Of a stretch of DNA of 64,000 bases, positions 20,235 to 60,680 are shown piece after piece (within the stretch, counting starts at the first letter, position 1; every line of letters begins with the position of its first letter). Source of the stretch: Perkinsus marinus ATCC 50983 (taxonomy: Eukaryota; Perkinsozoa; Perkinsida; Perkinsidae); assembly GCF_000006405.1 (NCBI RefSeq), contig NW_003208364.1:101618-165617 (forward strand), given 5' to 3'. The notes under the pieces are model-generated. The model did no database searches, had not been told where the DNA came from, and saw nothing but the letters and a program-made list of their open reading frames with translations. Both the position numbers and the translations under genes were made by a program.

Positions 20235-21050
20235 TCACAAGGAACGGAAGCGGATGTGGAACCTCTTTCGGGTGAGGCATTTGTTCTGAAGTCGCTCTCT
20301 GACGCTGCTCCGAATCATCTGCAGAACTAGGAAGCCACGATGAACAGCATATAATAGCATCAGCATCCTGTTCCTTGCACTGCTAAAATCCTGTTTACTT
20401 TGGTGATTCCTCCACGGTAGGACCGCCACACAATTGATGTGCATTTTGAATATTAGTTCAACAAACCTGTTGTTGGAGTTAGTCGTCAGTTTGTCGAGAT
20501 GAGGGAGCTTATGCAGCGAGTTGTATCGACTATATGCTTCTCGCATGTCCTTCCCCCATGTGCAAAGAGCGATACCCGCTTCGTCACATCGACACATCAG
20601 TCGTTTCGATACGTCTCAATGAACTCCAGTATTACTCGCTCTCCCACATGTCTCACCCAACGCGACACCGTGTCGCCGACACGACAAACCCTATTACTTT
20701 CCGAACTCTGCCTCATACACTCTCCACTAGCAACTACCGCGCGTGGGTTCCTCGATACACAGCTACATCACAAGTATAAGACAACGATGGAGGGCCATCT
20801 TTCGTGTCTTCAATGACTACATTATTCTAACGTCTCATGATCCATTCACGCTGAATCGAGCACAAAGGTACATCGTAAACGAGTGAAGGAAAAGACGAGT
20901 CATGCTTCCCATGCCCAGTGTGTAGAGGAGGAAACAACCCATGGTACCTCGGTTGTTCCCATTAGTAACTCGAGATCTCATAGGGAGGCTCATCGCTGCC
21001 CGTAGCGTAGAAATCCCATAGACGCTGGGGATGGAAGAGGTATTGACCAA
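20235..21050 (-). CDS. Candidate split gene with a membrane segment, unknown
   Basis: Leftward exons appear in order. The first contains GCFLLYTLGMGSMTRLFLHS followed by FTMYLCARFSVNG, a hydrophobic stretch. Next comes VIEDTKDGPPSLSYTCDVAV, then CRCDEAGIALCTWGKDMREA with YSRYNSLHKLPHLDKL, ending in a basic tail whose stop is at 20235. No family is recognised. Plus-strand frames over the same region are also open, so the strand choice rests on composition and is tentative. Confidence 0.35.
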
Positions 21051-21549
21051 ACCTCAAACCTGAAGCCCGGGAGCCGAGGTCTGGGTTTGGCAATACTGAC
21101 CAGAGGATGAGTCAGCGAACTGATGTGAATAAGCTATCCGAGCATTAGTCACAGAGTCAACTGCCTCATCTCTAGTCCCCCAGTATCAAGGGTAAGAAAG
21201 AAAAATCGTACTGCTGGGGTGCTCCACATCCCTACAGCAGTCCTTGGAGTCTGCCAGTTCTATCATTGCAGCACTCACTTACATCAACACAACAGGTTGT
21301 TTAGCGCTCGCCTCACGGGTACTCCGCTAGGTCGCACACTTTCCCTCTTATCGGGGATGGTGGTACGATCCCCAGCTGGGGAATTTCTCCGCCAAGAAAC
21401 CGTACCGTGTTTCTCTCTCATAGAAACCGTCGATTGTATGCAGAGACAGCTTAGCACGGGTGACGCGTGAGAAACGCGTGAATTTGTCCTGGTTGAACGC
21501 ATGTGATCCTCAGAAAGTAACTCATGTCTCGCGATCAGTTCTATTCGTG

Positions 21550-33168: not shown

Positions 33169-33987
33169 TCAATATTTCAAGCTCAACAGAAATATCAATG
33201 AAAAAATTATGGGTACAATACTGACTAGGACGCCAAAAAGTGTTCCGAGGCCGCAAATACACTCTTGCATCATAGAGACATCTCGATAGCCTCCTGTTTG
33301 GCACCTTGCATGGAAACAGGCATACACGCCGAATCCGACGCATTTGGGCTCGTTCATGATTCTTCCGACTCACTCGGAAAGGTTTCCAAGCCCAAGTCCA
33401 ATAGATGATCCTCGCCACTTTTCACGTACTCGTCACACTGCTTCATGATCGTTTTGATCCTAGAAGTTCATCAGAATGAGACAAATCTGGATAGAAATGG
33501 ATGATACTCACTTCTTGTTAATCTCGAGTGTCAATTGGTCTGCACCAGCGTCATAATAGAGCATTATAGAATCCAGTTTAACTGAACGGAGCATTCATTC
33601 AGCTGGACATCATGTCTCACCGCCGAAGTCATTGAGCTTCTTATTGATACAATCATCTGGATCCTTCCAGTGCGGAAGCTGCCCTGTATGGGTCTCACAA
33701 TCATACTGAACCAGAAGTGGACCATGATCGCCATCGAGTGGGACACCTGATATTCCTCCCGCTTGCAGTCCACCTGCTCCAAGAAGACCTCGAGGTAAAT
33801 GTCGAAATGTGTATCATCGTCGATTGTTATGCGTCCATTTCGGACCTAATTATTCAATGAGGGCTGGCCCCGTGTAAGCTTCGGAGCTCACTAGTTCTTT
33901 GTAGTTGCCACAGTAGGCTCCATGGGGCCGTTCGTCCGCCAAAGCTGAACCGGCTGCTAGGTAGAATAGCAATGCGCGTAGCATCAT
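33169..33987 (-). CDS. Signal-peptide protein with C-terminal membrane anchor, unknown
   Basis: The first exon begins MMLRALLFYLAAGSALADER, a clear signal peptide. Following exons read GAYCGNYKEL, GRITIDDDTHFDIYLE, LDGDHGPLLVQYDCETHTGQ, LPHWKDPDDCINKKLNDFG, GADQLTLEINKK, KTIMKQCDEYVKSGEDHLLD and CQTGGYRDVSMMQECICGLG. The end is the hydrophobic VSIVPIIFSLIFLLSLKY directly before the stop, i.e. a tail anchor or GPI-type signal. Many Cys suggest an extracytoplasmic fold. I do not recognise a domain. It starts about 100 bases downstream of the cofactor B stop, same strand. Confidence 0.6.
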
Positions 33988-34085
33988 GAACTGACTCGAG
34001 AAACACTTCTTACGAACTATTGCTCTTGAACACAACAACAGTAGGGAGAGTTTCTAATTCACAATCATCACATCAGGTGAGAGCC

Positions 34086-35233
34086 TTACAGCTCATCTTC
34101 AGAGGAGAGCTCAGCAAACGGATCGGCAGGTACGAACTCGGCACCGACGTTGACCTAAAGCTGTGTGATAGACGTGGAGAATGTTTGTTTCTTACATTCT
34201 CGCATAATACGAAGCAACCGTAGCCAGGTCTAAAGGAATTAAAGTAGGTCCACAATCGAGCTTGATTGCGATACCCGTTGGGGCAGCTGAAGTACTCCTT
34301 TCCGTCAGGTCCAACACCATCGGATTTTCCCTGAGGCTCATCTAAGCGAACCCCAACCCAGGAACCTGCTAACGACAATGATAGTAGACTATGCTGGTTC
34401 ACACTCGCCTCTTGGAAGTCCTTTAACCGGACCGAAATAAGCCACCTCTCCCCGTCGTCCGCCAGGATTTACCTCACATCGCTGGCCCACTGCATATCTA
34501 CAAGCTTCCACCAAGCTTGTGACGGTAGGAGTAGTAGGCCTACATCTCCCGCGCATTTTCTGGGGTGGGCGGTCTCTCAGGCACGGCAGCATCCTGGTTC
34601 TCTGCACAACACAAGCGCTCACATAGCTATTCAATGGCTCCAACGCGGCCCACCATCCGGTGTTGTCTGCGGCCCGAACTTAAGCTTGAAATTCGGATTT
34701 TTCTTCCTCTGCTCTCTGATATAATGCCTTAGTGTGTTAGTACGCTTATCGTAAGTCTCGTCATCCATAACGTATTTATCAACCTACAACGAACAGAACA
34801 AATATGTTGCGAGTGAGCCGATCTCACGTACCAGATCTAGATTCTCCAAAGCCCCTCCGGCAGAGACACTGTATGGGTCAGTGTCCTTGATGTGGATCGA
34901 GTCGCCGTTTTGAGCACCAAAGTCCCTTACACGAACAGATTTGATAAAATGCACTCATCGCAGCAACCACCTTAAAGTGAGCTTGTCATCATAGAGGAAG
35001 ATTGTATTCCCATCCGCACCCCTTAAAAATAATTGCATATGATCCACAGTGGTTCCATTCCTCTTGTAAAGTTTCTGCTTCACCGACTCTGAGTCAACGT
35101 AAACCTCTACATGCCACAACACAGTCGTGCTAACCAATGGTAGCAGCAAGGGAGAGGGTGGCATCATGTACTCGAGCCTGTAAGTTGCTGTGGGTAACGT
35201 CGACTCGTATGAACCCGTTTGCCAAACCGTCAT
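34086..35233 (-). CDS. TBCB: Tubulin-folding cofactor B
   Basis: Cytosolic chaperone that binds alpha-tubulin and passes it on in tubulin heterodimer assembly. The N-terminal ubiquitin-like domain is spread over exons MTVWQTGSYESTLPTATYRL, VDSESVKQKLYKRNGTTVDH and LFLRGADGNTIFLYDDKLTL. A linker reads YVMDDETYDKRTNTLRHYIR. The CAP-Gly domain follows: VGQRCEVNPGGRRGEVAYFG, then SWVGVRLDEPQGKSDG and EYFSCP, with YGCFV. The C terminus is acidic (AEFVPADPFAELSSEDEL), like the EDYGLDEI-type end in animals that interacts with cofactor E or tubulin. The intron inside the CAP-Gly domain (about 34369-34408, 40 nt) seems to use a GC donor. A start nine codons upstream (MCHKRVLVD) is an alternative. It lies next to katanin, another microtubule gene. 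Confidence 0.88.
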
Positions 35234-35503
35234 ATCTACCAAAACTCTCTTATGGCACATTTCTGAAGCGATTGATTTGCCACCTGGTATGATCGGCTGC
35301 TGTGACGTAATCCCGCAGTCCGCTGGTGAGTGGATGCATAGTCATAATAGTCAAATAACTGACACTCTACGACTGTGGACAAGGGGAACACGACTAGGTC
35401 ACGAAGGTGATACCTCAATTCGGCGGCATAAGGGTGAAATTGATATTGCCGCGAAGCATGTACAAGTATGACAGTTTTAATACTACAATTTTTCGGTGCT
35501 ACG

Positions 35504-38317
<2,814 letters not shown>

Positions 38318-38600
38318 AAATCAAATTCAGTTTACCCAATCACGATGCATGTAGAAGATGACGACTAACTCGAGAGAATTATTGATGGAAACTTATCAAG
38401 GAAGATCAACTAGCTCACATGCATGGGGCTCCTCCTCGTCGTCTCCCATCTCGGCTATGACCGTCCCTTCCTCTGGATCATTGCAACGATGGGTTGAACA
38501 CTTCCCGCGAGATGTTGCACTTACCAGATACCCTCGGAAAAGATTCAAGAGAGGCGTGTACCTGTGCATGAGGAGCAGTTCAGGAAAATTCCGATAGATT

Positions 38601-39347
38601 TCACTTGAGTAGAACATCGAGCCTCTCGAACGCTACTCGATCAGTGTGGGACCATCTCAGCTTGCTGCTCAGCCTCACACCCACGCCTACAAGTTGTGTT
38701 ACGATAAACCGCAAGAAAATGCCCAGCTGGTCCACATTCTCTTCTCTACAGTCCATTTCCTGCCGCAAGACCGCCAGAGGTATTCCGATCAAATCATCCA
38801 AGCCGTTGCGACGACTTCGAGGGATCTCAATCAACAAGGGCCGACAATAACCGTGAATGACACAGGAAGCACGCAGGCCATATGAGTACTTGGCCGATCC
38901 AAAAACTGATGTAGGGTCTACCGCCAGAATCCAACCAATAACCCAATCGTTATCCCTCAGCTGCACCCGAGCAACGGAGTCAGCGAGATCATCCACATCT
39001 GAGCCTTGAACACTTGTCACCACCGGTTGGGCCAGCTGACCCGATTCATAGTCGTGGAGGTTCACTTTCGCAGCTCCTCGTGTAAGGCAGGGAGCGTATC
39101 GATCCGTGAAGCTATTGGAAGCTGAATGTGACTCAGTCCAAGGATGCAGTTGAGAAAGTGGACCTCTGCTGATGACGCCATTCATAACATGAATTTTCGA
39201 TACTGAACAGGACTCGAAAGATTCGTGGAGTTCGAATTGTGACGATTGACCGCGCCCGACAACTGCATACACCTCATCTCTCAACGATTTGGAAGGTCGA
39301 ACTGTTGCATGAGAAGTATGGAACAACCGAATTAGAAGAAGGATCAT
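38601..39347 (-). CDS. Unknown protein, large single exon
   Basis: A 248-codon frame with varied composition, starting at 39347 with a hydrophobic MILLLIRLFHTSHATVRPSK. It then reads VGRGQSSQFELHESFESCSV, VTSVQGSDVDDLADSVARVQ, WVIGWILAVDPTSVFGSAKY and LIEIPRSRRNGLDDLIGIPL. A second open stretch (38396-38617: NFPELLLMHRYTPLLNLFRG and the acidic IAEMGDDEEEPHACELVDLP) probably belongs to its 3' part after a splice. No domain is recognised. It might be an extra N-terminal or neighbouring gene to katanin, but the gap to katanin's MIT exon argues for a separate gene. Confidence 0.5.
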   Translation of the reverse strand: MILLLIRLFHTSHATVRPSKSLRDEVYAVVGRGQSSQFELHESFESCSVSKIHVMNGVISRGPLSQLHPWTESHSASNSFTDRYAPCLTRGAAKVNLHDYESGQLAQPVVTSVQGSDVDDLADSVARVQLRDNDWVIGWILAVDPTSVFGSAKYSYGLRASCVIHGYCRPLLIEIPRSRRNGLDDLIGIPLAVLRQEMDCREENVDQLGIFLRFIVTQLVGVGVRLSSKLRWSHTDRVAFERLDVLLK

Positions 39348-39662
39348 TAGACGTGAATATGACCACTATCGCAGCGAATTTCGAATTACGAACGTGTTAC
39401 AAGAGTCTACATGAATCCGTGTACTTGCGTGCAATCTGCAATCACCGGGAGTCACTGACCAATCCTCCAATCATTTGTCGGAGACCATGATGATCTTTGA
39501 TGTTGGATATACACGAGATAACAGATAAACGGAACGGATACACGCAGGCATCGTTTACTGAGGACACTATTCAAAAGAGACAGCGGGCGCAAGGTCACAC
39601 AAAAAAGCTATCCGCGCTAGCTTAGAAATTGTATCTGGAAACAAACCTATTTTCCCGATATT

Positions 39663-40142
39663 TTGGCTTTGAGCAATATGATACGATCTGCCACTGCGGT
39701 TGTCCTCTCCATCTTGGGCCTCTGGTTGAGTGGTTGTAGCTCCGACTTGGAAGCGAGAGGACCAGAGCCTCTGGGTTCTGGGGGAACTACTAATGCTCCG
39801 TACGATCCCAATACCGATTCTAACTATCCACAATATCCGGTTGTTACTACAACTCAGTCACCTTGCCCACAAGGAGACGATTTTTGTCGTAGTCAAACCG
39901 TTAATGGCGGTGACTTCAGCAATTCTTTCTGTAAATACTGGCTGACCAATGAAGCCTATTGCCAGGGTCCTCCAGGCTCTACTGACCCTGAGCAGCTCAA
40001 TGTTCCTTGTGAATGTCCTTGTATATCAACTATTAGTGTTACATCTACCACTACTACTCTGAGTCCATCGACCACTGAGCCGCCAAGCACTTGGTCACCG
40101 TCGGCTGAATCGACTACAGTTACTACTTCAACCACTGATTGA
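39663..40142 (+). CDS. Small secreted Cys-rich protein with mucin-like Thr/Ser tail
   Basis: A single-exon frame of 159 codons. The start has a signal peptide, IRSATAVVLSILGLWLSGCS, followed by a Gly/Pro-rich spacer. Residues ~65-120 hold seven Cys (CPQGDDFC, FCKYW, AYCQG and CECPC). The tail is TSTTTTLSPSTTEPPSTWSP-like, a likely site of O-glycosylation, with no membrane anchor at the end. It is probably secreted or on the surface. The true start could be the second Met (39678). It is not recognised as any known family. Confidence 0.7.
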   Translation: MALSNMIRSATAVVLSILGLWLSGCSSDLEARGPEPLGSGGTTNAPYDPNTDSNYPQYPVVTTTQSPCPQGDDFCRSQTVNGGDFSNSFCKYWLTNEAYCQGPPGSTDPEQLNVPCECPCISTISVTSTTTTLSPSTTEPPSTWSPSAESTTVTTSTTD

Positions 40143-40275
40143 ACAGTGGCAAAGACCACTGTTCTAGAGACGTTTCAATTTTCACATTGATTGTTGAATT
40201 CATTTTCAATGAGATGAATAGTTGCCCAGGATTTCATTGATCAATTGAAGAAGACGCAAAACACATAAAATAGTA

Positions 40276-41867
40276 TCACGTGAGTAGCTCAATGGTAGGG
40301 GGCAGAGACGGAAATGCATCCAAAGAGAATTCCGCATTCTTGTAACGTTCGATATCTTCCTCCGATAGCCCCTTCGACGGTTTGATCTCAGGCAGTAGAT
40401 TTAAAGGTGTTCGGGGAATCCATGATGGCATCTTGTTCGAAGGAATTCCAGGCCGAACCACCAAGCTGTCCGGCCATGACAACGTGGGGAGAAGCGAGGA
40501 CTGTTGAGTTGCACCAAAGGGCCCGCTAGTGGCACCGAATGACGATGGCTTGCCACCGAAGGCGTTACCAAATCCCCCGAAAGAGCCCGTTGCAGAGGAT
40601 TGACTGCTTCCGAATCCACCAAACGGGGATGTTGTTGAGGTAGCTGCTGGTGTTGCACCAAATGGCGAGGGCTTCGGCCCCGCTGCAGGACCGAAGGGCG
40701 ATGATTTAGTCTGGGCAGATGCTCCTCCAAACGGTGAGGGAGCGACAGCATTTCCGCTGAAAGGCGATACCGATTTCGCCGTTCCCTCAATACCAAAGTA
40801 TTTCGACAGAGCGGGCTTAGAAATAATCTTCTCGAGACTTGCTTCCGTCTTGGCGATAGTGTCTCGTAAATGCTGGTTCTGAGGGTCCTCATACCGAAGC
40901 TCTTCGAAGCTGACGTCGATGCCGGGCGGCGTCAGGTTGCCCTGACCATCCGGTCCAAAGGACGACAAAGGGTAAAGCTCGCCCTTGTTCAACGCGGTTG
41001 CGATGTTCTGAGGAGCAGCGAGGAACTTACTTGATACAACCATGGAATACATTCACTTACTTCTCTCATTTTCCGGTTGCTCTCGTCCGGTACCAGATTC
41101 CCAACAACAGTAGCGGCAGGCAAAACGCCGGATGGTGGCACTATGGTTGTGGCAGGTGCAGTCAGATTCCCAAGAGTTGAAGCAGAGGGGTTCGCGTTGC
41201 TCAACTGTGAAGGCGATTGCCCGAATTGTGATGGTTGGGTTGCTGCACCACCACCAAAAGGACTCGGGGATACACCCGATGTAGTATTCCCAAAGGGACT
41301 TGGCTTCGTCCCCATTGCGTTACCAAACGCCGATGGTTGTGAGCTTCCAAAAGCGGCCGCCCCAAATGTTACAGGCTTCGAGCTCCCGAACGGTCCAGAA
41401 CCACCACCTGGTGTGCCGCCAAATGTAGGAGGAGTCGGCGACGACGATGTGATGTTGCCAACACCAAAGGGAGTCGTCGCCGCGACGTTACCACTACCGA
41501 AAGGACTTGGTGCCGTGACGTTGCCAGCACCAAAGGGAGTTGGTGCCGGTGTGGCTGTAGCTCCGAAAGGGTTCCCAGACACTTGCCTGCCTGCGCCGCT
41601 GCCACCGAATGGCGAAGCAGACACTGTGCCACCTGTGAGGGAAGCCTGCTTAATTGAGCCGCCCTATCGTATGACCAACCTCCAAATGGATTAGATGATG
41701 AAACTCCTCGACGCTGGGCATGAACGAATTTACAGGAGTCTCCGTACCGACAAGTCCCCTGAAGAAAAACTCTTGCACACGATTCAATAAGCTGAGCCAA
41801 CGATCCCGAGATTACAGTCTCTTCCCAGTTGCGGCAAGGCTTATTGTTGTGATGCTTGTTAGAGGGC
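40276..41867 (-). CDS. NUP42: FG-repeat nucleoporin with CCCH zinc finger, Nup42-like
   Basis: Nuclear-pore protein expected on the cytoplasmic side, aiding mRNA export with the Gle1 system. Removing a 58-nt intron joins NKPCRNWEET to GTCRYGDSCKFVHAQRR and restores a perfect C-x8-C-x5-C-x3-H finger near the N terminus. A second intron (about 47 nt) leads into many PFG and FG repeats (PFGGSGAGRQVSGNPFGATA, PTPFGAGNVTAPSPFGSGN). A third, with donor GTAAGT near 41040, precedes NKGELYPLSSFGPDGQGNLT, more repeats and a conserved-looking C terminus ERYKNAEFSLDAFPSLPPTI-ELL. Finger-first layout plus this C-terminal motif fit Nup42/NUPL2 rather than other FG nucleoporins. Confidence 0.85.
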
Positions 41868-48887: not shown

Positions 48888-51800
48888 TCCCGAGGGATGT
48901 CTGCCATATCACGATCGGCCAAAAGCCAGTCCGGGTCTTCTTCCCTGCTGTTCTCTCTCTGTATGGCGACCAACGGCGTTCCCTCACTAGGCGACCTGGC
49001 CGAGAACAGCAGGAACATAAACCGGATGTCATAGAGTGAAATATGAGAGAGTCATGATCGGCTCACCGGTCAGCAACGACGACGTGGAGATCCTCCTGAG
49101 TCGGCTCGTAGTCACGAAGCTCCGAGCCTCCTCTGTGGAAGGCCACCATACTGTATTGAGAGGGTCGGCCAGATTCAAGATCCGTCTGATTCCTTCGACG
49201 AAGCCGCTCGCGTCGTAACAATTTACGGCCCTAACAAAGGGCGATCTGATCTGTCTATATATAAGAGTGTAAATACCTCCTCCACTGTCGACGCATCTGC
49301 ACGAAGGCCACTGCCTTCAAATTCGAATGTTGACGACAGACCAAGAGCTCGAACGAGGCGATGGTACGTGTTAGTGAGCTGGAGTAGTGAAAAGACCTAC
49401 CAGTCATCACAGTGGTATAGTCGATACCCAAAGACTTACCAAAACTAGCAAAGGGAAGTAGATGACAAATTCTTGGCCTATTACTGGAGCCGTGGATATC
49501 GGAGTTCCGAACATCCGACCTGACAGAGATTCCTTGATTCACACCGACAATTGCGACGCTAAACTATGATACTCACCGAAGGACGTGGAGGAATCCAAAA
49601 TCCGCAATAGCTTGAGGTAATTGTACGCAAGTGGGAAGCCCAGTCGAGTCATCATCGAGGCACACCACAGCAGAGATGCACTGAGGAAGCACACGTTCTA
49701 ATACAAGCAGACGGGAACAAGACAATGAATGTAGGAGAACAACAGACTCGACCAGTTTGGTGAATTCATAAGGAGAGATGAACTCCAGTACTGGGTGAAT
49801 GAATAACTGCCGTGATATACGGAACCGACTCGCGAAGTGGTCAAGACTACCTATCGGTATGATTGTGTGTATAAAGACCATACGTCCCAGCAACCTTGAT
49901 CCGAAACAGCGACCAAAAGCAACAACCGGCAACATACAGCAAAGGTAAGCCAACAGCGAACTGGCCCAATGCTGCGGCGTATACCGGCGACACATAGCCA
50001 TCTGAAGACTGACTCTCCGTCAGGATGGTACATGAACTAATGCACCTTTCTGAATGATATCGAGCAGCCACAAAAGTTCATCGTATCCAAGGGCGAGCAA
50101 ACTGGACCACTTTGAGCCCCAGAACATGGTAGCCTAAAAGGAAGACTATTCTATTAGTGATAAAGGGTATCATAGTAGCAGCCTGGATCGTATCTCACCT
50201 GTCCAACTATTATACCAATGCTTAGAATCGCACAGAATAGTGCGGTGATACGCGTGAGGTATGGGAGTAGAGAATGCCTCGCGGACACCTACAACGAATA
50301 TTCTACTACAGTGGACAGTGCTGCAAAAAATGTTCGCTTTCCTCAGCTGAGCTCCAAATCCACTAATCATAGGATTTTATATACGAATTGGGAGAATATA
50401 TACGATTAGTGTACAGAAAGTAACAAGGATTTTCCAAATTTTCCTCAGAGATTTCATATTGTCACCAACACGTGTGGTTGACCATGCGCAAATAATCACC
50501 ACACTGAGAGTGGATACATCCCTATTCACGGGCTATGACGGAAAGGTATTCGCTTCCATCTCGCCACCAACTTCAATATGAAGTAAGCGGCTTCACTGTG
50601 AAGTTTTGGTTGACAGTGGAGCAAGACTTTCCGTGCTATAATGCCTTACGATCGTGTCTCGCAGTCTTTGTGATGCATTCCTTTGCGAAGGTACAGGGAT
50701 ATTCTCATTTGCTAAACGGTCCTCCAAAGCCCATCCTGTCTCTATCAAGTCCGACCACCTATAATGAAGTTTTAGGGAAGAGAAAGATGCGAGCATACTA
50801 CCTATGCTGACTACGCCTCGCCGTGGCCAAGGCACTGGACAATTCCAAATCTTCCTTGGAAGGGATAGGCCTCACAAGGGACAGGTTCGTTGGTATCAAT
50901 GGCGTGCCTACATCACCCTTCCCCAGAGTTAGCTGAAGAGATCTACGTCACCTTCAGTGTCTCCCTCTAGACATTCGGAAACAACTTCGTCCCGTCCATC
51001 ATAGAAATTCACAGCAATGCCCAAAAACTCTCCCGCTTCTCGTATCTACTCCGGATGCCATAGTGACAGACTCGTGCGAAAGCATATGTCTGGCGCCTAT
51101 TGCTCCGTCACTACAAGCTGCTTAGAAGCTCCCTGTCCTGATTCGCGCTCTTGATCACGGTAAAGGTTGAAGACGTCCATGAGGTCGAACTTCGCCGAAA
51201 GCCGTGCCTGCAGGGCACAATAGCAAGAACTTCATCGCATTTTACAAGGCAGTAAATTTACTATGCCGAACTCCTGTCGAAGACTCCTCTCGCAGAGCAC
51301 TTCCGGTTTATTCTTCAACATACCTAGTGTTTACTCATGCTCCCTTTATTACATCTTCTGCCGATACCACCTGAGCGTAGATAGCTTCCATATGGCGTTT
51401 GTCATATGACAACACATGCAACCACTGCGGTACAGCCACTAGACCATACCCCAACAGCAGAGTGACCAATACCAGACCCCATGCATTGGAAGCAGCATAG
51501 ATGAATCCAAGTATACCTTGCAGACCAAGCCGCTGCATGTACCACAAGTAAGCCAGGATCAACAGTCCAGCACAGGCGTATGCTAGGTACCAAATAGCAT
51601 TGTTGCGGAGAGCCTTCTTTATAGAGTGGACGGATTCGTATTCCAACATGATAGGGTATGCTATCCAGCATAGGGTGAACGAGATCCAATAGACGCTAGT
51701 CCAGGACTCAGAAAGGATTTCTGTATGCTCGTTAGTTCTCGAAAAGCATATATCGTACGGCAACAATATGAAGGTAGTTACCGCGAGAGCCATACCGCAG

Positions 51801-51973
51801 TACACCATCACAAACTGGAACAAGCTGGTATCCTTACTTGCGTAGCTGGCTAGAGTCTTTAGACCCCACAATAAGGATACTACCAGTGTGCCGACAGGGA
51901 GCACCAACGACTCTTCTATCGCCATCACCACAAATTGAAAATCATACTGAATAGACAGGGGGAATCGGCACAT
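48888..51973 (-). CDS. LMBRD2: LMBR1 domain-containing protein 2 homologue, full-length copy
   Basis: A nine-helix-type membrane protein of the LMBR1 family. The first exon (51973-51335) gives MCRFPLSIQYDFQFVVMAIE, hydrophobic GTLVVSLLWGLKTLASY, AVTTFILLPYDIC (the ILPLD-like motif), LRNNAIWYLAYACAGLLILA and SNAWGLVLVTLLLGYGLVAV-P, which match LMBRD2. Downstream exons read ARLSAKFDLMDVFNLYRDQE, HYRWSDLIETGWALEDRLAN, GLPLLYVAGCCFWSLFRIKV, AGTYGLYTHNHTDR and FASFGKSLGIDYTTVMT, matching the C-terminal membrane half. A hydrophilic tail ends EDPDWLLADRDMADIPRELP, stop at 48888. The second Met (51925) is a possible start. About 1.16 kb of its 5' part is repeated downstream of the LINE. Animal LMBRD2 is linked to receptor signalling; the role here is unknown. 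Confidence 0.85.
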
Positions 51974-52371
51974 CTCTTCTTACTTCCCCCGATTTTACCC
52001 CATACCCGCCAAGTAAAAAGTTCGGGGGACAGTTGTAAGCGCCTTGCGATACGACAATACATTATGCAACGCAACGGAAGATCAACTCAACCACATTCTG
52101 GCTACATCGCTCCGCTCTTTTGTCGCGTCACGTTGTCACTTTTTTCAATTTGTGTTGGTCCCAAAATTATGGATCCCAGAGCTGGCCGTAGTGGTGTGTT
52201 CTTAATACGTAAGAGTATTGTATGAACTTACCAAGTTCATTGGGGAAATGGCGCGGTAATCTCAGCAAGACCTGGTTTTGGGTCTATACCTAGTTTGGCC
52301 TGGTAATTCGCTTACCGAGTTATTTTTGTGTATCTTTGAAAACGTATTAAAGGTGTGGTTTGTTAACCTTG
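51974..52371. promoter_or_regulatory. Divergent promoter region of LMBRD2 and the EDR2-domain gene (copy A)
   Basis: The ~400 bases lie between two head-to-head start codons. Their counterpart in copy B (58873-59268) is similarly conserved. No TATA or other named element can be assigned. Confidence 0.55.
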
Positions 52372-53751
52372 ATGCCGTTCGGGTTGTGGTCCAAATCCAG
52401 CTCTGGTGTCTCTTCGGCATCCTCTTCAAGCGGCTCCCAACATCACCATCGACATCATGCATCGAAAACGCATAGACATGAACGGTCAAAGAGCTACTCT
52501 GCCTCTGCATCCAGTTCAGAAGAAGCTGCCGGGAAGGTTAAGGCTGTAGTTGAGAGCAGTGAGCATGAGGATGCCGAAGACGATGCAGTCCTAGCCAGAA
52601 TTGATCCAAAGGCCAAGGCAGGAAGTAAGTGGAAGAATATCAATGGAACGAATGACAACCGAATCGAATCAGTTTCGAGTATAGTAGTCACCTTCGTATA
52701 CATTTTCATTGGGAGGGAGGATAGTGTTATTGCATCAGGCACATTAGTTGACTCAGACTCGGACGGATGCTATGAGAAGGAGTACCTCGACTCATTGAAG
52801 CACAAGTCCAATCGCGCCAGTAAGAGGGCTCCCTTTAGCTGGCACTACAAGCAATTGGGGCTCAGGCTATGTGGGTGGCGCGGCGACAGGTGTAGCAGCT
52901 GCAGTTGGAACATTCGTGGTACTAACGGGCATCCCATCACGTCGCATTTCATTCTGCTCCTTCTACCCTGCCTGTTCTTGAATGCCCCATCTCGTTATAA
53001 TGATAGCAATAGCAATGGCTTGATAGTTATAACAATGGATGATGCCGCATCATCAAATAGTCACCTGATGCTGTTAGGATTGAGCTCTTGGTTGTATAAG
53101 TCTAATAGGTATTCGCATCACCTCTGGCCGTAGCCGGAGCCGCTGCTGTTGGCGCTGGTGGAGCATGGAAGTTGCTCCGAGACAAGGGAAAACGAGAAGT
53201 CAAAGCGGTAGTTATTGACTATCATCTCTCTATTCAGCACATCTCGCTATTGCTTGACCTCTCTGTGGGGGTCCATCGTCAATGACGATTGGTCATGCCT
53301 GGATTACTTCAGGCAGAAGGCACTATGAAGTCAGGGGATCATTCGGCTGATGTTACGCAGACCATGTTGGGGGCCTCTGGCACCGACTTGCCGTCCAAGA
53401 GTAATACGCCGTATTGTCTTCCATGTCTTAGCATTGCTATCTGATTCATCTCCTTGTGATCTAACCGAACTCATGTCTCATCAGGTTACTTCACGATTTC
53501 TGGGAAATCAGCGACCGAGCTCGATGAGTTTCTCGCTGGTGGAAAACCTAGTATTACCAGGAGGATAGATCTGTCATCATTGTTACGACGTCCTCAGGTC
53601 TAAAGAGACTCAAATTTCTTGTGTCATGGGCACGGCTGCAAGTGGAGGACTCCTTGCCAAGCATGGAGATGGCTCGTAAGATTCGGACTCGACTTTCGCT
53701 ATATCAAAGTCGAATCCTTTTACAGTTAACTCTGGAGACAGTGCACGGATA
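52372..53751 (+). pseudogene. 5' fragment of the EDR2-domain gene, interrupted by the LINE
   Basis: Starts MPFGLWSKSSSGVSSASSSS and has the same exons as the intact copy at 59269: His/Ser-rich start, YVGGAATGVAAAVGTFVV, SPLAVAGAAAVGAGGAWKLL, TISGKSATELDEFLAGGKPS and LKFLVSWARLQVEDSLPSME. The LINE begins inside the exon that encodes NSGDSARI, after which reading runs into spliced-leader sequence. The second half, including the EDR2 domain, is missing. It may still be transcribed from its promoter. Confidence 0.8.
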
Positions 53752-53783
53752 TCTTGGCTCAATCGTAGCCATCTTGGCTCAAG
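53752..53783 (+). other. Relict spliced-leader sequences, one partial and one nearly whole, in tandem
   Basis: Bases 53763-53783 read TCGTAGCCATCTTGGCTCAA-G. This is the dinoflagellate/Perkinsus spliced leader lacking its first base or so, with C in place of one T of the dinoflagellate consensus. Bases 53752-53762 (TCTTGGCTCAA) are the 3' half of a second leader placed just before it. They form the exact 5' end of the LINE. Tandem relict leaders are the known signature of mRNAs that were trans-spliced, reverse-transcribed, inserted, transcribed and trans-spliced again. Confidence 0.85.
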
Positions 53784-56700
53784 ATCTCAGTTGATCCTTT
53801 GATCTCTGCATCTCTCCCCCAACATGTCTGTGAGTCCGACCGACATCGCCAGCCTCCGTCAGCAGATCGCCGACCTCGCGAATATTATGTCTTCAAAACA
53901 AGACGTCCAAGTGATGAAAGGCTCAGATGGAAATGTCTTGGGCATCCAGGACTGCTTGGTCTTGATTGAACGAAAAATAAAAGCCCTAGAAGATAAGACG
54001 AATATGAGTCTGTCAGCCCTGAATGCCAAGATCGAGCACACAAACGAACGGGTTGGTACTATCGATGCAAGAATGTCCGACTACGTGTCAAAGCTCAATG
54101 ACAAGATCGATAACCAATCACAGATGATGAAGGATATGTACAGTCTGATCTCGAACATGAACAAACGTGGGGAAAACCAGGTAGGGAGATATGAGGAGAC
54201 AACGAGCGTTCTGCCGAAACCTCGTGAGAGAGTACCTGCCCCCGTACCATCGACACAGTGGTCCTACACACAATTCGACTACAAAAATAATGCTAAAGTA
54301 GTGATATTTGGTGTCCCGGAGGTTGATACGACGACAGAAAAGGAAGATGGGACTCCGATATTAAAACCAACAGTCAAAGAACAAGTGGAGAGGGCACTGA
54401 CTCGAGCTGGAGCAAGATGTGCTACTGATTCAATGCGTACAGCCAAGAGGCTCGGAGCGTACCGGTCTGATAGAGATTTGGAATCTAGGCCGAGGCCAAT
54501 CTGCATACAATTCGCACAGCCAGATGTGGCAAGTGAATTTGTGAAGGCTAATGGTGTGAACCTCAGGAAGCAAGGGCTGGGAATCAAGTGGTGGAGGCCT
54601 TATAGACCGAGAGCCAGTCAAGCTACGGAAGAGATCAGCTCCATGGCGGCCAGAATCGATGAGCTAGCGAGATTGGTGAAAAATCACACCTTATCGGCGG
54701 AAAAAGGAGTAGACGGTACCATAAGTGGTGAGGGATCGGATTTACTATATCCAGAGCAAGACTACAATATGGCAGGAATCGTGCGGCAAGAGAGAGAAGA
54801 TCGAATCGGCTGTACCACACAGATAGTGAGTCTGGGATCTAGAGGTGTAGGGGGTAACGACGGGGTGTGTGCCTTTTCTGAGCATGAGCTCCGCTCGCGG
54901 GAATCTAGGTCTAATGACATCGGGCATTGCCAACTGCTAACAAAATCGCATAAGTTTCTCATTGCGACCCTGAACATACGTACGGCACGTAAAGATAGAC
55001 AGATGGCGAAACTTGTGGGGCTCATCGAGAGAATGGAGTTGGATATCACCGTTGTATGTGAATCCCAAGTAGAAACCGAGAGCAGAATGGGAAGCTACAG
55101 AATCCTAAACTCCTCCAGTAAAGGAGTGAAAATTATTCTATCCGAGAGAGCCGAGAATTCAATGATAAAATGGACCGCACATCAAGATAGGATAGTATCA
55201 TGCCGCTTCTTTGGGAAGTATTTCCGTACCACAGTTATTGGACTATATTGGCCCGCAAACAACCGCAACAAGCGAACAGAAGACTATGAGCGGTTTTCGC
55301 ATGAACTTGATTTCGTTATATCACAAGTTCCACCGAGGGATATGTTACTCATATGTGGAGACTTCAACTGCACGGGGATCAACCGAGACCTACTCGACAC
55401 ACTAGCGCATACAAATGACCTCTGCATAGGTCAGTGGCATAAATTCAAACATCTGTCTACTACGCCTACCTGGAGACACCCCAATGCAGAGCTCCAGGGA
55501 AATGTCCTGGATCTGATACTCATCAGACGCCGATATGTAAACATGCTTGAGGCAATGGGCGTAAAGGATCCCCGACCTGTGGAGACAGACCACAGACTTG
55601 TCTGGGCTCGAATAGGATTGCACATATGCAGAGGATCAGGACAACGAAGTCGTGCCATGACTGAGAGGTATATCCGACGAATATGTGACAGTTCCCCTCG
55701 AAGGAAACGAATAGACCGTGAGCTGGAGAGAGCCACGGATGAGAACGACAGGATACGATCACCGGATGAAGAATGGGACGATTTCCGATCAAAACTCGAA
55801 CACGCAACCAGCCAATTCGAGAAATCGAGAACAAGAACCGGATGCAGGGACGTAGTATCTCAGCATCTCAAAAGGAAAGAAAGACGATCCAGGATAACCA
55901 TAGCAATAGAGGATATGACCAAGTGTCATGTGAACGACGATAAAGCACTGTGGAAAGTCATACAAGATACGTTCAAGGTGCGATCAGCAAGAGCTACTAT
56001 ACCCATGTCTCTCACTGTAGATAAAGTCGCAGACTATATGAGCAATATGCTATATGCCGATGGGCCAGTTGACAATGGAAGATACGGCGAAACAGACGAG
56101 CTGGCCATAACTGTCCCAAGTGAAGACCATGAGCCCGTGCCACCAGACATAAAGCTTAATGAAGTTACAGAAGCCATAAAGCGGCTTAAAAACAAGAAAA
56201 GCAGTGGCGTGGATGGATTACCGGCAGAAGTTTTCAAGATCGGGGTCGGAATGGCAAAGAGCATACAGAGGGTATGTCAAGCCTGTTTCGAAACCGAGAG
56301 ACTGCCAGAACAATGGGATATCTCGAAAGTTACGCTGATCTATAAGAAGGGGAACAAAAACGAGTGCTCGAACTATCGTACTATATTAGCACAATGTGCT
56401 GCAGCAAAGATCTTCAGCATTATTATACTCGCAAGGATCTACCCCGATATTGATAGGAAGATTGATAACTCCCAAGTAGCCTTCCGCCGCGGGAGATCCG
56501 GCCTAGAAGTGATACACGCATTACAATTATTGATAGACAAGTGCAATGCATTTGAATTACCACTGACATTGACCAGTACTGATTTCAGAAAAGCCTTCGA
56601 TAAAATATCTCGAGATCACGTGTATGAATCTTTGCGGTTGGCTCGGGTACATCCGAAGTACATCAGGATTGTAAAAAATTGTTATGAATCGGCAAAAGCC

Positions 56701-57709
56701 ACAATAAGGTTGCATAAGAGAGAGCAGACAATTGAGCTCAAAAGTGGACTGCGACAAGGTGACTGCTGGAGTCCCCTACTATTTATCTGCGGTTTGGACC
56801 GTGTCCTCGGCCAAAGGATAAGGGAGTCGCAATACGGATTTCGGTTAGTCAAGGAGATACAGCCCGGACGATACACTAGACTCAGTATGAGGAAGCAGGA
56901 TCTCGGACTATGTCTCAACGAGTTAAGTTTTGCAGACGACGTTACAGTACCTGCCTCCACAATCGAAGGAGCTGACCGTCAACTATCGTATCTCGAGGAG
57001 GATGGAAAAATTGCAAATCTCATGATAGCACCGGAGAAGTGCAAGAGACTGTGCGTTAACCTGGAGAGTAAGGAAGGCAGCTCGGAAAAGTCAAGGATTA
57101 AATGCACTGATAAATTGAGCATCCTCGGTGCCATAATCGATGGCAAACGGGATAATGAAACCCATATTCGTAGGCGCATGCAACTCGCGGGACAAAGAAT
57201 GGCAAGGCTACAGAAAGTTTGGAACTCGCATGATGTAAGCCTGAGACAGAAGTTTATTATTCTCCGAAGTGTGGTATTCTCGATATTATTATATGCTAGC
57301 GAGTGCTTTGCCCTGAGCAAAGATGAGACGGAGAAATACTGTGCATTCTACAACAAGTGTATACGGAGGGTGTTGCATATATCGCCTTCGTCGCACACCA
57401 CAAACCGCGAAATCTGGAGAAGGTCTGGTTGCCCTGATTGTCACATAGTCCTTAGAATGCGTCGCTTGCGTTGGTATGGCCACATCCTTAGAACACCCCC
57501 CGCATCTCTAGTGAACAGACTGCTGTTGTGGGATCCGGCATATCATTTGGGAGCTCAGATAAGCGGGAGAAAGCGGGAAGGTTGGATGGATCTCATAGCA
57601 GAGGATTTGAGAGTGGCGAGTCTGTCGCGAGGAGATGCTCAGGACCGAGTTCTCTGGGAGAGAAGGACTAAGGCTTTGAGACCGAGATTAAGGCTCAAAG
57701 GCACCAAGG
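53752..57709 (+). mobile_element. Non-LTR retrotransposon (LINE, CR1/Jockey-like), open reading frame intact
   Basis: The element fills exactly the space between the two direct repeats. It has a spliced-leader 5' end, ~40 bases of leader, then a single long frame from 53824. No poly(A), simple repeat or 3'-UTR is seen; the element ends inside its own frame (GTK) and the reading continues into repeat copy B until TAG at 57829-57831. The cut-off point comes shortly after the usual C-terminal end of such proteins, so little coding sequence can be missing. Confidence 0.88.
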
Positions 57710-57831
57710 CTACGCCTCGCCGTGGCCAAGGCACTGGACAATTCCAAATCTTCCTTGGAAGGGATAGGCCTCACAAGGGACAGGTTCGTTGGTATCAATG
57801 GTGTGCCTACATCACCCTTCCCCAGAGTTAG
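53824..57831 (+). CDS. LINE polyprotein: ORF1-like domain, APE endonuclease, reverse transcriptase
   Basis: 1335 codons without a stop. Residues ~1-130 are coiled coil (QQIADLANIMSSKQDVQVMK). Residues ~155-270 look like an RRM-type ORF1 domain (AKVVIFGVPEVDTTTEK, RPRPICIQFAQPDVASEFVK). The APE endonuclease at ~375-600 shows ATLNIRT, VVCESQ, LLICGDFNC, LDLILIRRRY and ETDHRLVWARI. The reverse transcriptase at ~785-1060 shows LKNKKSSGVDGLPAEVFK, STDFRKAFDKISRDHV, GLRQGDCWSPLLFICGLDRV, the catalytic FADD box in ELSFADDVTVPAS, and ILGAIIDGK. The C-terminal domain has RWYGHILRTPPASLVNRLLL and the end WMDLIAEDLRVASLSRGDAQ. All catalytic residues I can check are present, so it may be recently active. 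The last ~40 codons come from flanking DNA. ORF1-like and ORF2 functions are fused in one frame. Confidence 0.92.
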   Translation: MSVSPTDIASLRQQIADLANIMSSKQDVQVMKGSDGNVLGIQDCLVLIERKIKALEDKTNMSLSALNAKIEHTNERVGTIDARMSDYVSKLNDKIDNQSQMMKDMYSLISNMNKRGENQVGRYEETTSVLPKPRERVPAPVPSTQWSYTQFDYKNNAKVVIFGVPEVDTTTEKEDGTPILKPTVKEQVERALTRAGARCATDSMRTAKRLGAYRSDRDLESRPRPICIQFAQPDVASEFVKANGVNLRKQGLGIKWWRPYRPRASQATEEISSMAARIDELARLVKNHTLSAEKGVDGTISGEGSDLLYPEQDYNMAGIVRQEREDRIGCTTQIVSLGSRGVGGNDGVCAFSEHELRSRESRSNDIGHCQLLTKSHKFLIATLNIRTARKDRQMAKLVGLIERMELDITVVCESQVETESRMGSYRILNSSSKGVKIILSERAENSMIKWTAHQDRIVSCRFFGKYFRTTVIGLYWPANNRNKRTEDYERFSHELDFVISQVPPRDMLLICGDFNCTGINRDLLDTLAHTNDLCIGQWHKFKHLSTTPTWRHPNAELQGNVLDLILIRRRYVNMLEAMGVKDPRPVETDHRLVWARIGLHICRGSGQRSRAMTERYIRRICDSSPRRKRIDRELERATDENDRIRSPDEEWDDFRSKLEHATSQFEKSRTRTGCRDVVSQHLKRKERRSRITIAIEDMTKCHVNDDKALWKVIQDTFKVRSARATIPMSLTVDKVADYMSNMLYADGPVDNGRYGETDELAITVPSEDHEPVPPDIKLNEVTEAIKRLKNKKSSGVDGLPAEVFKIGVGMAKSIQRVCQACFETERLPEQWDISKVTLIYKKGNKNECSNYRTILAQCAAAKIFSIIILARIYPDIDRKIDNSQVAFRRGRSGLEVIHALQLLIDKCNAFELPLTLTSTDFRKAFDKISRDHVYESLRLARVHPKYIRIVKNCYESAKATIRLHKREQTIELKSGLRQGDCWSPLLFICGLDRVLGQRIRESQYGFRLVKEIQPGRYTRLSMRKQDLGLCLNELSFADDVTVPASTIEGADRQLSYLEEDGKIANLMIAPEKCKRLCVNLESKEGSSEKSRIKCTDKLSILGAIIDGKRDNETHIRRRMQLAGQRMARLQKVWNSHDVSLRQKFIILRSVVFSILLYASECFALSKDETEKYCAFYNKCIRRVLHISPSSHTTNREIWRRSGCPDCHIVLRMRRLRWYGHILRTPPASLVNRLLLWDPAYHLGAQISGRKREGWMDLIAEDLRVASLSRGDAQDRVLWERRTKALRPRLRLKGTKATPRRGQGTGQFQIFLGRDRPHKGQVRWYQWCAYITLPQS

Positions 57832-58872
57832 CTGAAGAGATCTACGTCACCTTCAGTGTCTCCCTCTAGACATTCGGAAACAACTTCGTCCCGTCCATCA
57901 TAGAAATTCACAGCAATGCCCAAAAACTCTCCCGCTTCTCGTATCTACTTCGGATGCCATAGTGACAGACTCGTGCGAAAGCATATGGCTGGCGCCTATT
58001 GCTCCGTCACTACAAGCTGCTTAGAAGCTCCCTGTCCTGATTCGCGCTCTTGATCACGGTAATGGTTGAAGACGTCCATGAGGTCGAACTTCGCCGAAAG
58101 CCGTGCCTGCAGGGTACAATAGCAAGAACTTCATCGCATTCTACAAGGCAATAAATTTACTATGCCGAACTCCTGCCAAAGACTCCTCTCGCAGAGCACT
58201 TCCGGTCTATTCTTCAACATACCTAGTGCTTACACACGCTCCCTTTATTACATCTTCTGCCGATACCACCTGAGCATAGATAGCTTCCATATGGCGTTTG
58301 TCATATGACAACACATGCAACCACTGCGGTACAGCCACTAGACCATACCCCAACAGGACAGTGACCAATACCAGACCCCATGCATTGGAAGCAGCATAGA
58401 TGAATCCAAGTATACCTTGCAGACCAAGCCGCTGCATGTACCACAAGTAAGCCAGGATCAACAGTCCAGCACAGGCGTATGCTAGGTACCAAATCGCATT
58501 GTTGCGGAGAGCCTTCTTTATAGAGTGGACGGATTCGTATTCCAACATGATAGGGTATGCTATCCAGCATAGGGTGAACGAGACCCAATAGACGCTAGTC
58601 CAGGACTCAGAGAGGGTTTCTGTATGCTCGTTAGTTCTCGAAAAGCATATATCGTACGGCAACAGTATGAAGGTAGTTACCGCGAGAGCCATACCGCAGT
58701 ACACCATCACAAACTGGAATAAGCTGGTATCCTTACTTGCGTAGCTGGCTAGAGTCTTTAGACCCCACAATAAGGATACTACCAGTGTGCCGACAGGGAG
58801 CACCAACGACTCTTCTATCGCCATCACCACAAATTGAAAATCATACTGAATAGACAGGGGGAATCGGCACAT
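57710..58872 (-). pseudogene. 5' fragment of LMBRD2, cut off by the LINE
   Basis: Starts at 58872 with the same first exon as the full gene (MCRFPLSIQYDFQFVVMAIE, ILLPYDICFSRTNEHTE, LLGYGLVAVPQWLHVLSYDK) and keeps the next exon (ARLSAKFDLMDVFNLYRDQE). It stops at 57710 where the LINE 3' end begins. The membrane core and C terminus are absent. First-exon coding is still open and only a few residues differ, so loss of function is recent. Confidence 0.82.
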
Positions 58873-60680
58873 CGCTTCTTACTTCCCTCGAATTTATCCC
58901 ATACCCACCGAGTAACAAGTTCGGGGGACAGTTGAAAGTGCCTTGCGATACGATAATCCATTATGCTAGACAGCGGAAGATCAACTCAACCACATTCTGG
59001 CTACATCGCTCCGCTCTTTTGTCGCGTCACGTTGTCACTTTTTTCAATTTGTGTTGGTCCCAAAATTATGGATCCCAGAGCTGGCCATAGTGGTGTGTTA
59101 TTAATACGTAAGAATGTTGTATGAACTTATCAAGCTCATCTGGGGAAATGGCGCGGTAAGCTCAGCAAGACCTGGTCTTGAGTCTATACCTAGTTTGGCC
59201 TGGTAAATCGCTTATTGAGTTATTTTTGTGTATCTTTGCAAACTTGAAGGTGTGGTTTGTTAACCTTGATGCCGTTCGGGTTGTGGTCCAAATCCAGCTC
59301 TGGTGTCTCTTCGGCATCCTCTTCAAGCGGCTCCCAACATCACCATCGACATCATGCATCGAAAACGCATCGACATGAACGGTCAAAGAGCTACTCTGCC
59401 TCTGCATCCAGTTCAGAAGAAGCTGCCGGGAAGGTTAAGACTGTAGTTGAGAGCAGTGAGCATGAGGATGCCGAAGACGATGCAGTCCTAGCCAGAATTG
59501 ATCCAAAGGCCAAGACAGGAAGTAAGTGGAATAATATCAATGGAACGAACGACAGCCGAATAGAATCAGTTTCGAGTATAGTAGTCACCTTCGTATACAT
59601 TTTCATTGGGAGGGAGGATAGTGTCATTGCATCAGGCACATTAGTTGACTCAGACTCGGATGGATGCTATGAGAAGGAGTACCTCGACTCATTGAAGCAC
59701 AAGTCCAATCGCGCCAGTAATAGGGCTCCCTTTAGCTGGCACTACAAGCAATTCGGGGTCAGGCTATGTGGGTGGCGCGGCGACAGGTGTAGCAGCTGCA
59801 GTTGGAACATTCGTGGTACTAACGGGCATCCCATCACGTCGCATCCCATTGTGCTCCATCTCCCCTGCTCGTTCTTGAATGCCCCATCTCGTTATAATGA
59901 TGGCAATAGTAATAGCTTGATAGTTATAACAATGGATGATGCCGTATCATCAAAATAATCTCCTGATGCTGTTAGGATAGAGCACTTGGTTGTATAAGTC
60001 TAATAGGTATTCGCATCACCTCTGGCCGTAGCCGGCGCTGCTGCTGTTGGCGCTGGTGGAGCATGGAAGTTGCTTCGAGACAAGGGGAAACGAGAAGTCA
60101 AAGCGGTAGTTATTGACTATCATCTCTCTATTCAGCACATCTCGCTATTGCTTGACCTCTCTTTGGTGGTTCATCGTCAATGACGATTAGTCATGCCTGG
60201 GTTATCTCAGGCAGAAGGCACTATGAAGTCGGGGGATCATTCGGCTGATGTTACGCAGACCATGTTGGGGGCCTCTGGCACCGACTTGCCGTCCAAGAGT
60301 AATACGCCGTATTGTCTTCCATGTCTTAGCATTGCTACCTGACTCATCTCCTTGTGATCTAACCGAACTCATGTCTCATCAGGTTACTTCACGATTTCAG
60401 GGAAATCAGCGACCGAGCTCGATGAGTTTCTTGCTGGTGGAAAACCTAGTATTACCAGGAGGATAGATCTGTCATCATTGATAGGACGTCCTCAGGTCTA
60501 AAGAGACTTAAATTTCTCGTGTCATGGGCACGGCTGCAAGTGGAGGACTCCTTACCAAGCATGGAGATGGCTCGTAAGATTCGTTCTTGGCTTTCGCTAT
60601 ATTACTGACTATTCTCTCGTCGGAATCCTTTTATGGATGTTTCTACTGCCGCAGTTAACTCTGGAGACAGTGCACGGATA
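57710..60680. repeat. Right copy (B) of the ~2.95-kb direct repeat flanking the LINE
   Basis: This 2971-base counterpart of 50811-53751 continues at its right end into unique sequence that completes the EDR2-domain gene. Its left end abuts the LINE. It keeps the ~30 bases lost in copy A near the right end. Confidence 0.92.

What the first reader, a model, noticed from the sequence alone, without database searches (positions are those of the whole stretch)
50811..60680. LINE flanked by 2.9-kb direct repeats: giant target-site duplication or LINE-joined segmental duplication
The same ~2.95-kb segment lies immediately left and right of a LINE, with both junctions sharp at the LINE ends (53751/53752 and 57709/57710). 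Left of copy A and right of copy B the sequence is unique. This is exactly the geometry of a target-site duplication, but about 100 times longer than usual. It could come from two distant staggered nicks repaired by fill-in, from template switching, or from unequal exchange. The roughly 2 percent divergence between copies, against an intact LINE frame, is a puzzle: the copies may come from two haplotypes.
Basis: partly seen in the sequence, partly recalled or inferred. Interest (0 to 1): 0.88.

Follow-up and report, generated by a model that had tools for sequence, protein, structure and literature searches.

The report
LINE insertions with kilobase target-site duplications
A jumping gene (LINE) in a shellfish parasite of the genus Perkinsus sits exactly between two copies of a 2.9-kb stretch of host DNA that another version of the same chromosome region carries only once, and five related LINEs that could be checked also have long repeats on both sides, so these elements may copy hundreds to thousands of bases of their target when they insert.

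Summary
A LINE (53752-57709) lies exactly between direct repeats A (50811-53751) and B (57710-60680). So this is a 2.94-kb target-site duplication (TSD). Corrections: A and B differ by 3.65%, not about 2%; the LINE has a tandem spliced leader at its 5' end but lacks the 3' stretch and GA-rich tail of its relatives, and its frame runs out into B. A, B and C23 are equally distant (3.65, 3.72, 3.89%), so A and B look like two alleles.

It is not a one-off. The five other LINE loci read with long flanks all have flanking direct repeats: 191 bp, 443 bp, about 590 bp, 1.48 kb, and about 2.7 kb up to a contig end (inferred 6 kb). Three of the five were chosen because a first look showed repeats. The closest precedent is human L1 in repair-deficient (NER-deficient) cells: TSDs up to 5.3 kb, median 1.5 kb. 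How the second end is captured, and whether A and B came from two homologues, is inference. No reads were available.

The parts
50811..53751 (+). Copy A of the target segment (2941 bp), continuous with the left flank
   Evidence: Self-BLAST; three-way alignment with B and C23
53751..53762 (+). Partial outer spliced leader at the LINE's 5' end: 12 nt identical to positions 10-21 of P. marinus SL1 (first base may belong to copy A)
   Evidence: SL1 as printed in PMC3101222
53762..53783 (+). Inner spliced-leader relic, 21 of 22 bases identical to P. marinus SL1
   Evidence: 0 of 200 shuffled leaders reached 18/22
53752..57709 (+). LINE insertion with leader at the 5' end, lacking the 3' stretch and GA-rich tail of its relatives
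53824..57831 (+). Open frame of 1335 aa (family similarity ends at 57688; the last codons read into copy B)
54964..55530 (+). APE-type endonuclease domain (PF03372, residues 381-569)
56350..57087 (+). Reverse transcriptase domain (PF00078, residues 843-1088)
57689..57709 (+). 21 nt between the end of family similarity and copy B; no other match with up to 5 mismatches in the seven sequences scanned
57710..60680 (+). Copy B of the target segment (2971 bp), continuous with the right flank
51335..51973 (-). N-terminal part of an LMBR1-like host gene in copy A
   Evidence: PF04791 E=6.8e-32, profile 9-209 of 510
58207..58872 (-). The same LMBR1-like gene part in copy B
   Evidence: PF04791 E=6.4e-32

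Best explanation
The structure is one LINE insertion with a 2.94-kb target-site duplication, and such long duplications are common for this LINE group in this Perkinsus genome. SHOWN: LINE exactly between two copies; a homologous region with one copy and no LINE; an RNA-derived 5' end carrying the spliced leader; long flanking repeats at five other LINE loci, the second copy starting at the GA-rich 3' tail in four of them. INFERRED: target-primed reverse transcription (or, for this tail-less copy, priming at a break) starts at position p (B's left edge). The far end of the cDNA is not joined next to the first nick but to a second break 0.2-6 kb downstream, on the same duplex, the sister chromatid or the homologous chromosome. 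Repair synthesis or rejoining then leaves the whole interval on both sides. For the window copy, joining to the homologue would explain why A and B differ like alleles while the LINE frame is undamaged. The stated confidence is for the single-event giant TSD as part of a recurrent pattern: about 0.9 for the TSD itself, 0.75 for the pattern, 0.45 for the inter-homologue step.
For: Single-copy, LINE-less C23, contiguous across both breakpoints and collinear where sampled further out. C23 is not a recent A x B recombinant: it has 57 private sites, against 50 for A and 55 for B. LINE 5' end = tandem Perkinsus spliced leader (PMC3101222 and PMC6050394, passages). Long direct repeats at five further loci: C159 1475/1489 bp, 98.4%; C47 443 bp, 99.1%; C343 191 bp, 99.5%; C34 558 bp, 88.7%, plus 34 bp; C216 about 2.7 kb, 96-97%, up to the contig end. 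The second copy starts at the GA-rich tail in C159, C47, C343 and C34, and all four repeat ends are base-exact in C159, C47 and C343. A, B and C equidistant. If the A/B divergence had arisen after insertion, the estimated chance of a still-open LINE frame is 0.9% (6.7% simulated without a stop times 13.9% calculated without a frameshift).
Against: Only this locus has a clean empty allele. None was seen for C159, C34 or C47, and C343 gave a one-sided 84% match. C34, C47 and C343 were chosen for long flanks because a first look had shown repeats; C159 and C216 were chosen without that. Thirteen other stretches with about 1.5 kb of flank showed no long flanking repeats, though such flanks miss kilobase repeats; matches on eight further contigs were not examined. 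In C216 the 136 bp next to the tail are a dispersed repeat absent from the matching C57 stretch, which also lacks about 380 bp, so that end is not base-exact. In C34 the repeat contains dispersed repeats and a LINE-3'-like piece, and the LINE's left edge there is inferred. The window LINE lacks its 3' stretch, which canonical priming at the RNA's 3' end does not predict, and its frame is shifted past the family's stop. Deletion-type outcomes cannot be seen by this method. No reads.
Confidence: 0.75

Rival explanations
1. Same giant TSD, but with identical copies at birth; A and B became different later because each side recombined with empty haplotypes in an outcrossing population. (A rival to the inter-homologue step only.)
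For: A, B and C are equidistant and the sites private to A or B are clustered (38 runs against 53.4 expected, p about 0.002), as haplotype mixing would give. C47 and C343 copies are still 99-100% alike.
Against: It needs exchanges that leave almost no identical stretch next to the LINE (last 29 bp of A, first 92 bp of B) while the LINE frame stays undamaged.
Confidence: 0.4
2. Two separate LINE insertions, at p on one haplotype and at q on another, followed by crossing over inside the LINE.
For: Gives the same geometry and two-haplotype copies.
Against: The search listed no near-identical second copy (best other protein matches 59% over 487 aa and 85% over 176 aa, whose counts are lower bounds). 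Long flanking repeats recur at five other loci, each of which would need two neighbouring insertions.
Confidence: 0.04
3. Assembly artefact joining two haplotypes through a collapsed LINE.
For: No reads available; the assembly holds two versions of this region (C164, C23).
Against: An assembler cannot invent a LINE-B junction unless a LINE lies at p in some molecule. Base-exact geometry recurs at C159, C47 and C343.
Confidence: 0.06
4. Old tandem duplication, LINE inserted afterwards at its junction.
For: Divergence of A and B would be explained by age.
Against: Needs insertion at the junction at each of the loci. C23 has a single copy. The 5' end of an RNA-derived insert abuts the repeat end.
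Confidence: 0.03
5. LTR-like or terminally repeated element, the repeats being part of the element.
For: Direct terminal repeats around an RT gene. The C34 repeat contains a LINE-3'-like piece.
Against: A and B carry host gene sequence (LMBR1) and occur as one copy without RT in C23. The searched parts of A/B and the C159 repeat had no relatives at other listed LINE loci. APE-LINE domains.
Confidence: 0.01

Closest known systems
Human L1 de novo insertions in nucleotide-excision-repair-deficient cells (Genetics, PMC5223499; passages read)
   Same: LINE between large target-site duplications; the paper's text gives 5 bp-5.3 kb, median 1495 bp, in deficient cells; some inserts lack the A tail or use atypical cut sites, which resembles this tail-less copy.
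   Different: There it is induced in mutant human cells with an engineered L1; here it is in a natural protist genome, at the six LINE loci that could be judged. Whether the host lacks NER parts was not tested.
L1-mediated large duplication in a human tumour (PMC7058536; passages read)
   Same: A single L1 insert bridges the ends of a duplicated segment; the authors propose joining of the cDNA to a break on the sister chromatid.
   Different: 22.6 Mb and somatic; here 0.2-6 kb, inherited and seen at several loci.
Ordinary insertion with short TSD (e.g. Entamoeba SINE1, classes centred between about 6 and 24 bp, PMC2996970; passages)
   Same: One insertion, direct repeat of the target on both sides.
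   Different: One to two orders of magnitude longer here.
Spliced-leader-tagged retrogenes of dinoflagellates (PMC6050394; passages)
   Same: A trans-spliced RNA was reverse transcribed, leaving tandem leader relics.
   Different: Here the tagged RNA is the LINE itself.

Membership tests
Non-LTR retrotransposon (LINE, APE type) | Reverse transcriptase domain | tested here: met
   PF00078 E=4.5e-19; solved L1 ORF2p E=4.7e-17
Non-LTR retrotransposon (LINE, APE type) | APE-type endonuclease | tested here: met
   PF03372 E=7e-8, 32.9 bits against a cut-off of 24.5
Non-LTR retrotransposon (LINE, APE type) | No element-encoded terminal repeats | tested here: met
   A/B are host DNA, single in C23
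Non-LTR retrotransposon (LINE, APE type) | 3' tail (a usual, not a strictly defining feature) | tested here: not met
   Missing in the window copy; GA-rich tails in C159, C47, C343, C34 and C216. The copy is filed as a LINE on its domains and 5' end, as a 3'-shortened copy
Non-LTR retrotransposon (LINE, APE type) | RNA-derived 5' end | tested here: met
   Tandem spliced leader at the 5' end
Target-site duplication | Element exactly between the copies, and a single copy at an unoccupied homologous site | tested here: met
   C23 contiguous at both breakpoints
Target-site duplication | Copies identical at birth | tested here: inconclusive
   A/B 3.65% apart, equal to the distance to C23; C47 and C343 99-100% alike
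NER-deficiency-type giant TSD (human L1) | Most insertions with TSD over 100 bp, up to several kb | tested here: inconclusive
   6 of 6 loci with long flanks, window included, but 3 of them chosen after repeats were seen; 13 stretches with short flanks undecided; 8 contigs not examined
NER-deficiency-type giant TSD (human L1) | Host lacks or weakly uses NER factors (XPA, XPC, XPD) | not tested
Three dinoflagellates are reported without XPA, as are plants and trypanosomatids (PMC6680887 passages)
LTR retrotransposon | Terminal repeats belong to the element and recur between copies | tested here: not met

The most novel reading that the evidence does not exclude
In Perkinsus, LINE retrotransposition routinely completes at a distant second break (0.2-6 kb downstream), often on the homologous chromosome, so each insertion is also a local tandem duplication of host DNA and sometimes a stitch between two haplotypes. 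The cause may be a host that naturally lacks the repair step which keeps LINE target duplications short.
Probability: 0.4. Interest if true: 0.88.

Novelty: new variant of a known kind. Interest (0 to 1): 0.78.

Why it matters
How the second half of LINE integration is completed is still called very poorly understood (abstract of PMC6895275, seen in the listing). A natural genome in which the second cut lies hundreds to thousands of bases away would give many readable endpoints for that step. It would link the effect seen in NER-deficient human cells to normal evolution, and would make LINEs direct makers of kilobase gene duplications. Where the two copies are allelic, they would record joining between homologous chromosomes.

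Tried and rejected
Rejected: LTR-like element; pre-existing tandem repeat; two insertions plus crossing over; C23 as a recent recombination product of A and B (57 private sites). The idea that B's first bases are old LINE 3' sequence was tested: the best-matching relatives (C147, C262, C10, C306) stop matching at 57688 and none of the listed matches continues into B except A and C23. The 21-nt stretch at the LINE end had no other match with up to 5 mismatches in the seven sequences scanned (window, C23 region and five LINE loci).

Led nowhere: empty sites for C159, C34 and C47 and C343 (one-sided 84% match to C100); 1.5-kb flanks of 13 other stretches; Pfam on the N-terminal part of the LINE protein (weak matches only, all below cut-off). 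The LINE clade was not determined; C137, C15, C237, C82, C70, C69, C257 and C120 were not examined. Literature: the lists shown (20 of 97, 20 of 220, 8 of 8, 15 of 38 and 15 of 31 papers) name no report of long LINE target duplications in Perkinsus or another protist in title or shown abstract. I opened only the papers cited with passages, and the library misses most subscription journals.
Full report
WHAT IS THERE. The window is a piece of contig C164 of a 54.5-Mb genome in 347 contigs. The best hit of the LINE protein is from Perkinsus marinus (46% identity over 38% of the query), and a 612-aa window protein is 78% identical to a P. chesapeaki protein. I take the host to be a Perkinsus; the species was not determined. 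The window contains a direct repeat A (50811-53751) and B (57710-60680) with a LINE exactly between them. A and B differ at 107 of 2929 ungapped columns and by five indels.

THE EMPTY SITE. A genome search with the left junction found, besides A and B, one further place: C23 on the reverse strand. Aligned to the window, C23 runs through the left flank, one copy of the segment and the right flank without any LINE. Collinearity holds where sampled: window 47.9-64 kb with interruptions, the right flank to the window's end at 96%, and window 19.8-24.5 kb, whose match at C23:77.0-79.8 kb is about where collinearity predicts it. C23 is therefore best read as the homologous region of another haplotype (a very long duplicate is not excluded), with an unoccupied site. 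That makes this a target-site duplication, 2941 bp long.

THE LINE. It encodes an APE-type endonuclease and a reverse transcriptase in one frame, with L1 ORF2p as best solved relative. Its 5' end reads as a partial spliced leader followed by a second leader, 21 of 22 bases identical to P. marinus SL1 (the SL sequence from PMC3101222, passages). Tandem leaders are taken as evidence of repeated retroposition of trans-spliced RNA in dinoflagellates (PMC6050394, passages). So the insert came from RNA. Its 3' end is shortened: four relatives (C147, C262, C10, C306) stop matching at window 57688, have a stop codon there, and continue with a related 3' stretch ending GA-rich; the window copy has 21 bases of unknown origin and then B. 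Its frame therefore runs on into B and stops at 57831.

OTHER COPIES. A protein search listed 48 matches on 28 contigs (counts are lower bounds; one of the contigs, C306, was also seen). I could read long flanks for five loci besides the window. C159: a LINE of 5608 bp whose 5' end matches the short leader at 18 of 21 bases, between copies of 1475 and 1489 bp (98.4%). C47 (with near-identical blocks on C128 and C171, counted once): 443 bp, 99.1% in C47. C343: 191 bp, 99.5%. C34: 558 bp, 88.7%, plus 34 bp; I read the 1572 bp between these two pieces on the left as a later insert, and the LINE's left edge there is inferred. C34's repeat contains dispersed repeats and a LINE-3'-like piece. C216: the stretch from 195590 to the contig end at 198391 matches 187091-189782 (96-97%, about 2.7 kb) on the other side of the LINE. 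Since the LINE's 3' tail is at 193139, the inferred unit is about 6.07 kb. C57 carries a matching stretch 33470-40295 beside a piece of LINE (96-99% in one part, 87-89% in the other, about 380 bp missing), and the 136 bp next to the C216 tail are a dispersed repeat not seen in C57. In C159, C47, C343 and C34 the second copy starts at the GA-rich tail; in C159, C47 and C343 all ends are base-exact.

That is 6 of 6 loci with long flanks, the window included. C34, C47 and C343 were chosen after one search had shown repeats in 1.5-kb flanks; C159 and C216 were not. Thirteen other stretches with about 1.5 kb of flank showed no long flanking repeats (an 89-bp repeat in C262 is internal), but the same view had shown nothing of the kind for C159 and C216. 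Matches on eight further contigs were not examined. As a contrast, a 407-bp repeat-family insertion in the window (21014-21420), absent from C23, has about 6 bp of duplication.

AGE PUZZLE. A-B, A-C and B-C distances are 3.65, 3.72 and 3.89%; private sites are 50, 55 and 57: a star. Sites private to A or B are clustered (38 runs, 53.4 expected, p about 0.002), as in recombining haplotypes. If the A/B difference had built up after insertion, the chance that 1288 codons stay free of stops and frameshifts is estimated at 0.9%; the one visible change is the shift past the family's stop at the very end. For C34 the same estimate for its 678-codon open frame is 4.7% for no stop and 0.06% for no indel of any length, though another part of that LINE has one TAG. 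So the copies are probably allelic rather than aged: either the cDNA was joined to the homologue at insertion, or each side later exchanged with empty haplotypes. The data do not decide between these two.

MECHANISM. Shown: RNA-derived insert, exact placement between two copies, unoccupied homologous site, recurrence. Inferred: first-strand synthesis at p, and completion at a second break downstream instead of a cut next to the first. In human cells lacking nucleotide excision repair, L1 insertions show the like: 5 bp-5.3 kb, median 1495 bp, with some tail-less inserts (PMC5223499, passages). Joining to a sister chromatid has been proposed for a 22.6-Mb L1 duplication in a tumour (PMC7058536, passages). 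Three dinoflagellates, from the sister lineage of Perkinsozoa (PMC9399869, passage), are reported without XPA (PMC6680887, passages). That is a lead, not a test: plants and trypanosomatids also lack XPA (same passages), and trypanosome LINEs have short duplications (recalled).

VERDICT. The finding is real as far as an assembly can show, its main reading is supported, and it is part of a pattern. New variant of a known kind: giant LINE target duplications were known as a laboratory phenotype and as uncommon events, not, in the lists shown, as the habit of a natural genome.

Noticed in passing
G000, 68 places incl. window 53765-53783: The 19-base core of the Perkinsus spliced leader occurs 68 times (0 for the reversed control). 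Twelve same-strand pairs lie 5.1-6.3 kb apart (C22, C39, C70, C74, C132, C137 twice, C176, C221, C233, C271, C281), as if a roughly 5.7-kb retroelement carried the leader in both ends; C281:23135-24284 looks like a tandem array with a period of about 565 bp.
   Followed up: no
window 21014-21420: A 407-bp repeat-family insertion present here and absent from homologous C23, with about 6 bp of target duplication.
   Followed up: partly
C47:17499-23999, C128:12275-18778, C171:221435-227938: Near-identical blocks of at least 6.5 kb carrying the same LINE with the same 443-bp repeats: a recent duplication or repeated contig end.
   Followed up: partly
C262:67433-68022 (L015, L028): A decayed LINE copy with an 89-bp perfect direct repeat around 412 bp inside it.
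   Followed up: no
window 50315-50507 and 50508-50810 against C23: Just left of copy A the two haplotypes differ strongly (193 bp in the window against 16 bp, then 89% identity over 303 columns), while further left they are 98% alike.
   Followed up: no
PMC3101222 primer list against window 53770-53794: A published P. marinus 'SL-like' primer begins CCATCTTGGCTCAAGATCTTAGTG, close to the LINE 5' end (CCATCTTGGCTCAAGATCTCAGTTG); some reported SL-like genes may be LINE 5' ends.
   Followed up: no
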